Below, piece after piece: positions 1-1,846 of a DNA stretch of 5,147 bases. Within the stretch, counting starts at the first letter, position 1. Each line of letters begins with the position of its first letter. The DNA is taken from positions 1 to 5,147 of the forward strand of contig JAGGWO010000078.1 in the NCBI GenBank assembly GCA_021157485.1. The letters are read 5' to 3'. Below the pieces are notes generated by a model. The model worked only from the letters and a program-made list of their open reading frames with translations. It was not told where the DNA came from and did not search any database. Both the position numbers and the translations under genes were made by a program. The stretch is from Sulfurimonas sp. (GTDB lineage: Bacteria; Campylobacterota; Campylobacteria; Campylobacterales; Sulfurimonadaceae).

Positions 1-1116
1 AATCATTATGTATCCGTTTGCGTTTGCTAGAGGTGATACCATACCTGGTGCGAAATGCTCACATACTTCAAAATATTCACCATCAAAATATCCAGGAACA
101 AGAGTTCTTCTGCCAGCTCTTAGCTTGTAATCATTTTTTATCTTTGCATTAATTGTATTTAAAAATCTAGATTTATCTCCACTCATGGCGAGTATTATGC
201 TCTGACCAAAGAGTTCAAAGTTTAGAGCAGCCGCGAGTGGATTTCCCGGTAGATTTAAAATGATAGTATCTCCGATTTTACCAAAAGTAGTTGGTTTACC
301 CGGTTTAATCTCTATCTTGTCAAAGAGTATCTCGTATCCAAATGCACCAAACGCCTCTTTTGTAAAGTCTGCATCGCCAACACTCACACCACCAGAAGTA
401 ATGATTATGTCACTATCAAGTGCACTTTTTATGTGAGCTTTGATATCTTCTAAAGTATCAATAGAAGTTCCTATAAAATCTACTTCACAACCAAGCTCCT
501 TAGCACGTGCTAAAAGTGTAGGAGTGTTAGTGTTGTAGAGTTGATAAGCTTCAACTTGTTCAAAATGCATCTTAAGCTCATTCCCTGAGGCAAACAGAGC
601 TACTTTTGGACGTTTATGAACTTTGATATGGCTAATACCTTGAGAAGCTAAAAGAGTTATCTTGTGTGCGTTGAGTCTATCTCCTCTGTGAAGAAGTTTT
701 TCACCTTTTTTGATATCTTCACCACTTAGTCTGATATGTTTTGAGATAGTGAGATTTTGAGGCAGAGTAACACCACCATCACAAGGAGTAGTATCTTCAA
801 TAGGAACAATGCACTGCGTCCCCATTGGAATTCTAGCACCTGTCATTATTTTTATGCCACAACCTGCGTTTAACTCCTCTTTAGAATCATCACCTGCAAA
901 AATAGTATGTGAAACTTTTACATCTTTAGAGCTGTCAACTATTTTCACGGCATAGCCATCCATAGCAGAGTTATCAAAAGGAGGTAGATTATGTGTAGCT
1001 ATTATATCTTCAGCTATAACTGAGTCTAAAGCCTCTTCTATCGGTACGATTTTGAGTGATTTTTGTTTAATATTTGTATAGATTAACTCGAGTGCTTTTT
1101 CAACTGTAACTGCCAT
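1..1116 (-). CDS. moeA: Molybdopterin molybdenumtransferase MoeA, C-terminus cut off by window edge
   Basis: MoeA inserts molybdate into adenylylated molybdopterin, the last step of making the molybdenum cofactor used by enzymes such as nitrate reductases and formate dehydrogenases. It is cytoplasmic. The visible 372 residues run without a stop to the window edge. Family MoeA is about 400 residues, so roughly 30 residues of the C-terminal domain are missing. Visible motifs are LPPFDNSAMDGYAV (44-57) in the N-terminal domain, TSGGVSVGDAD (240-250) in the molybdopterin-binding domain, IKPGKP (270-275) and LPGNP (289-293). The ATG at 1116 is supported by AGAGGT (1130-1125) eight bases upstream. 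The gene stands alone on this strand, divergent from the ribosome cluster, and its upstream region is taken up by a structured repeat element. Identification is firm from the motifs. Which molybdoenzymes it serves cannot be seen here. Confidence 0.96.
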   Translation of the reverse strand, partial: MAVTVEKALELIYTNIKQKSLKIVPIEEALDSVIAEDIIATHNLPPFDNSAMDGYAVKIVDSSKDVKVSHTIFAGDDSKEELNAGCGIKIMTGARIPMGTQCIVPIEDTTPCDGGVTLPQNLTISKHIRLSGEDIKKGEKLLHRGDRLNAHKITLLASQGISHIKVHKRPKVALFASGNELKMHFEQVEAYQLYNTNTPTLLARAKELGCEVDFIGTSIDTLEDIKAHIKSALDSDIIITSGGVSVGDADFTKEAFGAFGYEILFDKIEIKPGKPTTFGKIGDTIILNLPGNPLAAALNFELFGQSIILAMSGDKSRFLNTINAKIKNDYKLRAGRRTLVPGYFDGEYFEVCEHFAPGMVSPLANANGYIMI

Positions 1117-1139: not shown

Positions 1140-1172
1140 TAAGTAATGGAGAAGGGATAACTTCATACTCAA
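1140..1172 (+). repeat. Left terminal inverted repeat of the element
   Basis: The sequence here is the reverse complement of 1376-1408, with 32 of 33 positions identical. The core GAAGGGATAACTTCATACTC is identical in both copies. Confidence 0.92.
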
Positions 1173-1173
1173 T

Positions 1174-1268
1174 GAGAAGATAAGCTATAAGATGCAAGGC
1201 AAAATCTCGCAGTTGCACTTATTGTGCTTCAAGAGGTTTTAACGATGTAGATTATAGCTTATCTTCTC
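1174..1268. repeat. Arm A: long hairpin inside the element
   Basis: A perfect 17-bp stem (1174-1190 with 1252-1268) is followed inward by a short TGCA/TGTA pairing (1193-1196 with 1246-1249), an 8-bp stem with one wobble (1201-1208 with 1233-1240), and a small GCAC/GTGC hairpin at the tip (1215-1218 with 1224-1227). The arm is thus a nearly continuous extended hairpin of 95 bases. Confidence 0.85.
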
Positions 1269-1281
1269 ACCCAAAGGGCAA
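1251..1281 (-). promoter_or_regulatory. Possible promoter facing moeA, inside the element
   Basis: On the minus strand a perfect TATAAT (1256-1251), preceded by AAGC, has TTGCCC (1281-1276) 19 bases upstream as a weak -35. Transcription would start near 1244 and give moeA a leader of about 128 bases made of element sequence. The -10 box lies in the arm A stem, so it may be a by-product of the palindrome. No better promoter for moeA was found between the element and the gene. Confidence 0.35.
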
Positions 1282-1375
1282 GATTTAAAAGATTCATCTT
1301 CTTCGTTGAACTTCACTTAACGATGCCAGCATCGCCAAATAAAATTCGCCTTGAATATAAACTTTTTAAATCTTG
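1279..1375. repeat. Arm B: second hairpin of the element with a nested small hairpin
   Basis: CAAGATTTAAAAG (1279-1291) pairs with CTTTTTAAATCTTG (1362-1375), leaving one bulged base. ATTCA (1292-1296) can pair with TGAAT (1352-1356), extending the stem. Within the loop, CGATGC and GCATCG (1321-1326 and 1329-1334) form a perfect 6-bp palindrome. The arm ends exactly where the right terminal repeat begins, so the two helices would stack. Confidence 0.8.
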
Positions 1376-1408
1376 TTGAGTATGAAGTTATCCCTTCTTC
1401 ATTACTTA
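1376..1408 (-). repeat. Right terminal inverted repeat of the element
   Basis: This is the inverted copy of 1140-1172 with a single difference at 1399. Its outer end covers the -35 region of the promoter proposed for the downstream membrane protein gene. Confidence 0.92.
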
Positions 1409-1420
1409 AGGATATTATAT

Positions 1421-1426
1421 TATAAT
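1421..1426 (+). promoter_or_regulatory. -10 promoter box before the membrane protein and rsmE unit
   Basis: A perfect TATAAT sits in an AT-rich run, the usual form of Campylobacterota housekeeping promoters, where the -35 box is poorly conserved. The -35 position (about 1398-1403, TTCATT) falls inside the right terminal repeat of the element. Initiation about seven bases downstream would coincide with the A of the ATG at 1433, which would make the transcript leaderless. Confidence 0.6.
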
Positions 1427-1432
1427 TTCGCC

Positions 1433-1846
1433 ATGAATGAAATGTATAATATGGGTTTATCCCTCCATAGTATCGGCGGAATCGCACTTGTAGGCGTAGT
1501 TTTTTTAAATATTTTCATGTTGAGAATAGCTAAAGATTTACAAAAATATAAAAGATTAATGAGTATATTCTTACTTCCTTTGACTGCTACTGTTATAGGT
1601 TTAGATATTTTTACCGGTGTTATTATGATGGCGGCGAAGCATTTGGACTTCACAATAGAGAATATCGTAATGATTGCAATCTCTGTACTTTTAATAGTTA
1701 TAGAAGCTAAAAGAGCTAAAAGTTTAAAGTATATAAATCCTAACAAAGACAGAGCGCTTGAAGCGTATAAAGGCTATGGGATTAAACTTCTTTATATAGA
1801 AGCTGCTTGGGTATTAGTTATCTTCATTTGGATGTGGTGGATTTGA
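1433..1846 (+). CDS. Small four-helix integral membrane protein of unknown function
   Basis: The protein has 137 residues and is almost entirely hydrophobic. Likely membrane helices are at about 11-30, 45-67, 74-91 and 117-137. A basic loop (31-41) follows helix 1 and another (92-107, rich in Lys and Arg) follows helix 3. By the positive-inside rule both loops are cytoplasmic and both termini lie outside. The C-terminus is Trp-rich (WMWWI). I see no catalytic motif. His12 in helix 1 and the TGVIMMA stretch in helix 2 faintly recall CopD- or HemJ-like membrane proteins, but that is too weak to name. The frame opens upstream at TTG 1373, but that extension is encoded by the repeat element and lies upstream of the -10 box, so I start at ATG 1433. 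ATG 1442 and 1451 are alternatives. The stop codon overlaps the rsmE start. I recall a similar membrane gene beside rsmE in Campylobacter, unverified. Confidence 0.8.
   Translation: MNEMYNMGLSLHSIGGIALVGVVFLNIFMLRIAKDLQKYKRLMSIFLLPLTATVIGLDIFTGVIMMAAKHLDFTIENIVMIAISVLLIVIEAKRAKSLKYINPNKDRALEAYKGYGIKLLYIEAAWVLVIFIWMWWI

What the first reader, a model, noticed from the sequence alone, without database searches (positions are those of the whole stretch)
1140..1408. A 269-bp branched inverted-repeat element between moeA and the ribosome cluster
Seen directly: 33-bp terminal repeats with one mismatch that is still a G-U pair in RNA, then two internal arms (17-bp perfect and about 13 bp with one bulge) packed with almost no unpaired bases at the junctions. 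Arm B abuts the right terminal repeat exactly. A simple MITE needs only its ends, so the conserved inner arms suggest selection on folded DNA or RNA. Possible roles are a transposable hairpin element, a structured non-coding RNA, or a bidirectional transcription stop. I have an unverified impression that similar intergenic elements, with a CCCAAAGGG turn and a CGATGC hairpin, occur in other marine Proteobacteria.
Basis: partly seen in the sequence, partly recalled or inferred. Interest (0 to 1): 0.72.

Follow-up and report, generated by a model that had tools for sequence, protein, structure and literature searches.

The report
Twin-hairpin jumping element across bacteria
This is a roughly 270-base DNA element without a recognised gene, belonging to a mobile family that inserts at the dinucleotide TA; relatives in the window's own bacterial order and in Pseudomonadota keep the same two mirror-image hairpins although most of their letters differ, it is likely moved by IS630-type transposases supplied by other elements, and what the hairpins do is untested.

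Summary
Window 1140-1408 is a 269-bp branched palindrome: 33-pair ends (P1), arm A, a CCCAAAGGG hairpin, arm B. It is very probably a non-autonomous IS630-type element (MITE). Matches occur in 54 of 135 genomes of the genus, own included. The 29 relatives' loci aligned have the moeA intergene without it. A 269-bp relative in G079 has an exact empty site in G081: one TA empty, TA on both sides filled. Two end types match IS630 elements; the window's own ends match only weakly (17 of 31). Unlike an ordinary MITE, the interior is conserved as a fold: 66 of 102 base pairs changed on both sides. Covariance models find the two-armed plan in 80 of 398 genomes of the order and 53 of 398 Pseudomonadota, against 1 of 299, weakly, in the phylum of an Enterococcus record. 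New here: arm B reverse-complemented carries arm A's motif, and each arm folds better on its own, opposite, strand (30 of 31 and 31 of 31 genus copies). So the core looks like a two-fold symmetric pair of strand-specific hairpins. Whether they act as DNA or RNA is unsettled.

The parts
1140..1141 (.). left TA target dinucleotide (start of TAAGT)
   Evidence: 34 of 45 copies have TAAGT at both ends; exact TA duplication shown for the G079 copy against its empty site in G081, not countable at this locus
1140..1172 (+). left terminal inverted repeat, 5' strand of P1
   Evidence: ends of copies; covariation
1173..1269 (+). arm A: 18-bp outer stem, motif GATGCAAGGC / AACGATGTAGAT around an 8-bp stem and terminal hairpin; folds better on the + strand
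1270..1278 (.). small hairpin P3, CCCAAAGGG; each stem pair kept in 30-31 of 31 genus copies, loop varies (GAA, GTA, TAC, TTC, AAA and others)
1279..1375 (-). arm B: 13-pair outer stem, inner CGATGCCAGCATCG hairpin, motif CTTCGTT...TTCGCCTTGAAT = reverse complement of arm A's motif; folds better on the - strand
1376..1408 (-). right terminal inverted repeat, 3' strand of P1
1407..1408 (.). right TA target dinucleotide
   Evidence: sequence
1..1116 (-). moeA (left neighbour, divergent)
   Evidence: Pfam
1433..1846 (+). ORF without a Pfam family (right neighbour, divergent)
   Evidence: start conserved in relatives

Best explanation
It is an element without a recognised gene from a family that inserts at TA, likely moved in trans by IS630-family transposases acting on its terminal repeats, and its two inner arms are conserved, oppositely oriented versions of one hairpin that probably work as strand-specific folded ends of the element. 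Shown: copies, empty sites, TA duplication in a relative, IS630 ends matching two subfamilies, covariation of each of the five long helices, and a shared motif and better fold on opposite strands in the two arms. Inferred: a transposase such as the one at G127:C7 binds the ends (P1) and cuts and pastes such elements at TA. Inferred, and the mechanism I commit to: when the DNA is single-stranded or extruded as a cruciform (replication, transposition), each half of the element (terminal repeat plus its arm) folds as one inward-reading end; the two arms stand in inverted orientation because transposon ends do. The arms would then compact and pair the two ends or recruit a hairpin-binding protein. 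I give the DNA-level role about 0.4 and an RNA-level role about 0.35.
For: Multiplicity: 54 of 135 genomes of the genus, own included; 14 elements with both ends 223-240 bases apart in 40 G046 loci. Empty site of this very locus in the 29 relatives' loci aligned, the best of 128 other matching genomes. Exact TA duplication, G079 against G081. IS630 ends: G127 insertion sequence against the element of the same genome, 25 of 31 bases; enterobacterial IS630 against the Vibrio element, 22 of the first 24 bases. Fold: 66 of 102 pairs changed on both sides, 94.4% of cells paired (shuffles 82.1%, slid 35.7-44.1%). Two-fold symmetry: both strands of the same place match the models. Strand polarity: + strand arm A G-U 87 / A-C 9, arm B G-U 12 / A-C 102, P1 29 / 21; alignment-free, the sense strand is more stable in 30/31 (A) and 31/31 (B) genus copies, 26/28 and 25/26 in a set from the order, 25/32 and 25/32 in Pseudomonadota (RNA energies; DNA energies agree). 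Hairpin-type instability: one Phaeobacter plasmid lineage lacks about 64 bp of one arm; arm-less P1 palindromes of 38, 64 and 52 bp.
Against: No transposition was seen. The window's own ends match the G127 IS630 end at only 17 of 31 bases. In the own genome only a 20.7-bit IS630 fragment was found, and I recognised no IS630 ORF beside lone ends in 12 G046 and 10 other loci, by eye without a family search. Eight IS630 loci searched with the model have no twin arms of their own, so the arms do not come from those insertion sequences. In G046 a repeat with the same kind of ends but no twin arms recurs (66 shared bases in 5 loci). Strand-specific folds fit RNA as well as DNA. In Pseudomonadota the per-pair G-U bias shows only in the arm A columns and the preference falls to 25 of 32. 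Outside the genus, elements were picked mostly by models that encode the motif and pairs, so those counts are not independent. Related copies are not independent either.
Confidence: 0.57

Rival explanations
1. Orientation-independent RNA device: the element is an IS630-moved MITE, and whichever way it is transcribed the first arm made reads RAGGC..AACG and folds into the functional hairpin, which would steer processing or stability of the host transcript and make insertions tolerable.
For: Strand-specific wobble pairs and conserved internal loops in each arm; 24 of 49 copies lie between tandem genes; RNA-level effects of MITE transcripts are reviewed for NEMIS and ERIC (PMC2229807, passages read).
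Against: No match in Rfam; 16 of 49 copies, and the window's own copy, lie between divergent genes where little read-through is expected; no expression data.
Confidence: 0.35
2. Plain MITE: only the terminal repeats matter; the inner palindromes are kept matched by gene conversion or template switching between the two strands of a hairpin, with no selected function.
For: Self-correction between the sides of a palindrome would also give matched stems (general knowledge of quasi-palindromes); arm-less derivatives and a recurring arm-less repeat with the same kind of ends exist; the motif counts outside the genus are biased by model selection.
Against: It does not explain the conserved unpaired motif and the opposite strand polarity of the two arms in copies that were collected by blastn alone, nor the same plan with other ends in Pseudomonadota.
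Confidence: 0.17
3. Bidirectional terminator or insulator: the hairpins stop transcription on both sides.
For: Very stable hairpins; 0 of 49 copies inside an ORF.
Against: No terminator-like site in 1000-1600; 7 of 49 convergent against 16 divergent; -10-like sites next to copies are not commoner outward than inward (32 and 38 of 98 ends within 40 bases).
Confidence: 0.06

Closest known systems
RUP (pneumococcal repeat proposed to be moved by IS630-Spn1) and other TA-ended bacterial MITEs such as Correia/NEMIS and ERIC
   Same: Short, TA at the ends, terminal repeats; RUP ends resemble an IS630 element (PMC2229807, passages and sections 4 and 7 read).
   Different: The review describes these repeats as about 100-200 bp with long stem loops formed by end-to-end pairing and, apart from CIR, without arms; here there are two conserved, oppositely oriented arms plus a third hairpin inside 33-bp ends.
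CIR repeats of Caulobacter and Brucella
   Same: Two arms joined by a linker, conserved between species, TA at the ends (PMC2229807, sections 4 and 7 read).
   Different: About 110 bp, no terminal inverted repeat, GANTC motif at or near a terminal loop. Here: 33-bp terminal repeats, and the one GANTC (GATTC, 1291-1295) lies in arm B's stem region. CIR sequences were not compared.
IS630 family insertion sequences (NF033545)
   Same: End sequences of two subfamilies and the TA target.
   Different: They encode a transposase; the model finds no twin arms of their own in 8 IS630 loci.
BIME/REP elements
   Same: Inverted pairs of strand-specific hairpins (recalled; alternating orientation is in an abstract listed).
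   Different: REPs are 20-40 bp (abstract in listing) and tied to REP-associated tyrosine transposases (title in listing); TA duplication and IS630 ends are not part of them (recalled).

Membership tests
MITE moved by an IS630-family transposase | short, no coding capacity | tested here: met
   269 bp; the only ORFs of at least 50 aa touching it are a 56-aa one (1317-1487, -) and the upstream extension of ORF 1373-1846
MITE moved by an IS630-family transposase | multiple dispersed copies | tested here: met
   54 of 135 genomes of the genus, own included; 14 elements with both ends in 40 G046 loci
MITE moved by an IS630-family transposase | terminal inverted repeats | tested here: met
   33 pairs, one G-T
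MITE moved by an IS630-family transposase | TA target-site duplication with empty site | tested here: met
   exact for the G079 copy; for the window's own copy the empty site is shown but relatives are too diverged to count the TA
MITE moved by an IS630-family transposase | ends shared with an IS630-family insertion sequence | tested here: inconclusive
   met for relatives: G127 25 of 31, Vibrio 22 of the first 24 bases; for the window's own ends only 17 of 31 against the G127 IS
MITE moved by an IS630-family transposase | movement by that transposase in trans | not testable with these tools
   needs a transposition assay
CIR repeats | no terminal inverted repeat, about 110 bp | tested here: not met
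   33-bp terminal repeats, 269 bp
Rfam structured RNA | match to a described RNA family | tested here: not met
   only two sub-threshold microRNA matches in the window, E 0.099 and 0.39
intrinsic bidirectional terminator | G+C-rich hairpin followed by a T run; preference for convergent genes | tested here: not met
BIME/REP | RAYT transposase nearby, REP tetranucleotide | not tested
   features recalled or seen in listings only

The most novel reading that the evidence does not exclude
A single structural module - two oppositely oriented copies of one strand-specific hairpin (RAGGC / GCAG / CAA / AACGMAG around freely varying stems) with a CCCNNNGGG pivot - has been kept by selection inside TA-inserting elements of the window's order and of Pseudomonadota while ends and stems were replaced, making it a conserved orientation-independent nucleic-acid machine (transposition synapse or RNA device) rather than transposon filler.
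Probability: 0.47. Interest if true: 0.8.

Novelty: new variant of a known kind. Interest (0 to 1): 0.66.

Why it matters
MITEs are usually defined by their ends. Here the interior is the conserved part: the fold and a few unpaired letters persist in the window's order and in Pseudomonadota while stems and ends change, and the two arms are polarised to opposite strands. That predicts a factor that reads the hairpin, gives a search model for many 'intergenic palindromes' (one seen here is annotated as a small hypothetical protein), and makes the question whether bacterial MITE interiors act at all directly testable.

Tried and rejected
Terminator reading: rejected. Promoter-providing reading: no outward bias of -10-like sites. 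Rfam: nothing. Plasmid and phage blastn with the window's element: no match. A degenerate arm pattern, designed partly from a recalled gammaproteobacterial repeat, found nothing in viral contigs and 3 genome contigs that R1 (loci) and R2 (genomes) do not support, so they are probably chance; a second arm pattern found nothing in viral contigs. Transposase beside lone ends: none recognised by eye in 12 G046 loci and 10 others. The alphaproteobacterial end type (TAGGGTCAGG) was searched in plasmids: none of the 40 of 283 records listed shows a transposase under the match, so that end type is not tied to IS630 here. R2 does not match the Phaeobacter P128 element, L194, which is linked by blastn to L152 only. 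Per-pair wobble counts on model-fitted alignments were inconclusive for arm B (the A3 part used a wrong P3 boundary, mended), perhaps because arm B is forced into the genus-type pairing; I relied on the alignment-free fold test. A Vibrio empty site was sought and not found. A strict TA test on other subfamilies gave 15 of 25 and 19 of 32; the local alignment overshoots some ends. Four relatives whose moeA intergene matched in two pieces were fetched; R2 finds no element there. Papers: searches listed no description of a two-armed IS630 MITE that I recognised; I saw listings, plus passages of PMC4853749, PMC10969869 and PMC2229807 and two sections of the last. Most subscription journals are not held, so this is weak evidence of novelty. 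The Thiomargarita paper (PMC4853749) reports TA-ended hairpin MITEs that I did not compare by sequence.

Full report
What is there. Window 1140-1408 is a 269-bp branched palindrome: 33-pair ends (one G-T), an 18-bp arm A stem with a structured interior, CCCAAAGGG, and arm B with a 13-pair outer stem and an inner CGATGCCAGCATCG hairpin. It folds at -117.1 kcal/mol against -53.5 (sd 4.5) for shuffles. It lies between moeA (-) and an ORF on + starting at 1433, so the neighbours diverge.

It is a repeat family. blastn finds only this copy in the own genome, which is 80% complete, but 54 of 135 genomes of the genus, own included, match (5 candidates per genome scored). Rescored more deeply, G046 has 30 matches, fragments included, and in 40 G046 loci 14 elements have both ends, 223-240 bases apart. 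Ends start mostly TAAGT and differ between subfamilies, but the two ends of one copy match each other.

It moves. The joined flanks of the window's copy match 129 of 135 genomes, own included. I aligned 29 of the 128 others, the best-scoring ones: all 29 have the moeA-to-ORF intergene without the element. Of those that matched in two pieces I fetched four; R2 finds no element in them. The 29 are about 70-75% identical, so the TA duplication cannot be counted at this locus. For a 269-bp copy in G079, the genome G081 (97% identical there) has the empty site: one TA where the filled site has TA on both sides. 34 of 45 copies have TAAGT at both ends. 0 of 49 copies lie inside an ORF by a simple ORF rule.

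The mobiliser. TA duplication is the mark of the IS630/Tc1/mariner group (established knowledge). NF033545 gives a match over the cut-off in 9 of 135 genomes of the genus. The one at G127:C7 lies in a 1,069-bp element whose end agrees at 25 of 31 bases with the twin-arm element in the same genome. The end of the Vibrio tritonius element agrees at 22 of the first 24 bases with an IS630 end in a Citrobacter plasmid, and similar ends lie on Salmonella and Fukatsuia IS630 elements. The window's own ends agree with the G127 end at only 17 of 31, so for this copy the link runs through relatives. No movement was observed.

The interior is conserved as a fold. On 31 copies (kept from 63 hits at under 93% similarity, some of the 63 being the same place; alignment), 94.4% of cells pair (shuffled 82.1%, slid 35.7-44.1%), 66 of 102 pairs have changes on both sides, and none of 500 shuffles reaches any of the five measures. 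The structure came from the window's own fold and the consensus, which favours the unslid version; relatedness inflates the shuffle comparison.

Two arms, one motif, two strands. Reverse-complemented, arm B reads like arm A: RAGGCRAA, a stem, a terminal hairpin, the stem back, then AACGMAG. On the + strand arm A has 87 G-U and 9 A-C cells, arm B 12 and 102, the ends 29 and 21 (arm B's inner register was corrected). Without aligning pairs, the strand that reads the motif folds better in 30/31 (A) and 31/31 (B) genus copies, 26/28 and 25/26 of a set from the order (some of it same genus), and 25/32 and 25/32 Pseudomonadota elements by RNA energies; by DNA energies 28/30, 31/31, 25/28, 26/26, 27/32, 28/32 (two short arm B sequences of the second set were left out, ties are not counted). 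Against this, model-fitted per-pair counts show the bias only in the arm A columns. The genus copies were collected by blastn; the other two sets mostly by models that already encode pairs and motif, so their counts are weaker evidence. The motif RAGGN..AACG is in sense arms A and B of 28 and 29 of 31 genus copies (antisense 0 and 10), 22 and 20 of 28 (antisense 0 and 2), and 19 and 23 of 32 Pseudomonadota elements (antisense 2 and 2).

Range. Model R1 (28 sequences) matches 80 of 398 genomes of the order, own included, in 24 of 87 genera; 68 of them have a best E below 1e-15 by my count. Stems are unlike the window's. It finds two further elements in the own genome. Model R2 (58 rows of both strands) matches 53 of 398 genomes of the phylum of a Thalassovita record (Pseudomonadota by its title), 33 of them above 60 bits by my count; weaker ones are partly single arms. 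The phylum of an Enterococcus record gives 1 of 299, best 35.7 bits. By blastn from two of these elements, named carriers are Vibrio, Photobacterium, Pseudoalteromonas and Catenovulum and Phaeobacter and Pseudosulfitobacter replicons in the plasmid collection; R2 itself matches the V. tritonius and V. campbellii ones but not the Phaeobacter one. Ends differ between subfamilies (TAAGT.., TATACCC.., TAGGGTCAGG..); the third type was not tied to any transposase.

Instability and arm-less forms. Phaeobacter gallaeciensis P11 lacks about 64 bp of one arm that P128 has. Arm-less palindromes of 38, 64 and 52 bp occur in G115 and G068. G046 also has a repeat with related ends and no twin arms: 66 shared bases in 5 loci. 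So the ends alone may suffice to move, and arms can be lost; that the full core nevertheless recurs argues for a use.

Mechanism. I commit to an IS630-moved MITE whose arms are extensions of its two ends acting as strand-specific DNA hairpins (about 0.4), with an orientation-independent RNA device close behind (about 0.35). The symmetry is what transposon ends have; the wobble polarity needs a single-stranded state but does not say which nucleic acid.

Known or new. TA-ended MITEs, RUP proposed to be moved by IS630-Spn1, and two-armed CIR repeats are known (PMC2229807, passages and two sections read). A two-fold symmetric twin-arm core shared by distant groups was not found in the paper searches, which cover open papers only. 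I file it as a new variant of a known kind.

Noticed in passing
G000:C184:710-935 and G000:C99:922-1148 (L127, L128): Two further twin-arm elements of other subfamilies in the own genome (135 and 88 bits).
   Followed up: partly
L200:3435-3472, L204:2209-2272, L205:992-1043: Short palindromes made only of the two terminal repeats or little more (38, 64 and 52 bp), with the arms gone.
   Followed up: partly
L064:715-947; also L063, L065, L068, L075 (G046): A second repeat with related TAAGT ends but no twin arms; 66 inner bases are shared by the five loci.
   Followed up: partly
L228 (G046:C71): An IS630 fragment with one TAAGT-type end lies close to a full twin-arm element in the copy-rich genome G046.
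   Followed up: no
L194 against L195 (Phaeobacter gallaeciensis plasmids): About 64 bp of one arm missing in strain P11 relative to P128, a natural arm difference between related plasmids.
   Followed up: partly
L196:3082-3249: A hypothetical protein (WP_342610029.1) is annotated inside a Vibrio tritonius twin-arm element; probably not a gene.
   Followed up: no
L038 (G115:C1:1433740-1433992): Arm B carries an extra stretch with its own CCCTTTGGG hairpin, as if the pivot hairpin had been duplicated into the arm.
   Followed up: no
window 1409-1427 and L254: Both empty sites examined in detail lie a few bases upstream of a TATAAT-like box before a gene start; over 98 ends there was no outward bias.
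   Followed up: partly
P3 loops of the aligned copies: The pivot loop is often GAA or GTA on one strand (TTC or TAC on the other); GNA triloops are, from recall, unusually stable in DNA.
   Followed up: no
L034 (G055:C284): The 50 flanking bases printed on the two sides of the element are reverse complements of each other: a fold-back contig, probably an assembly artefact.
   Followed up: no
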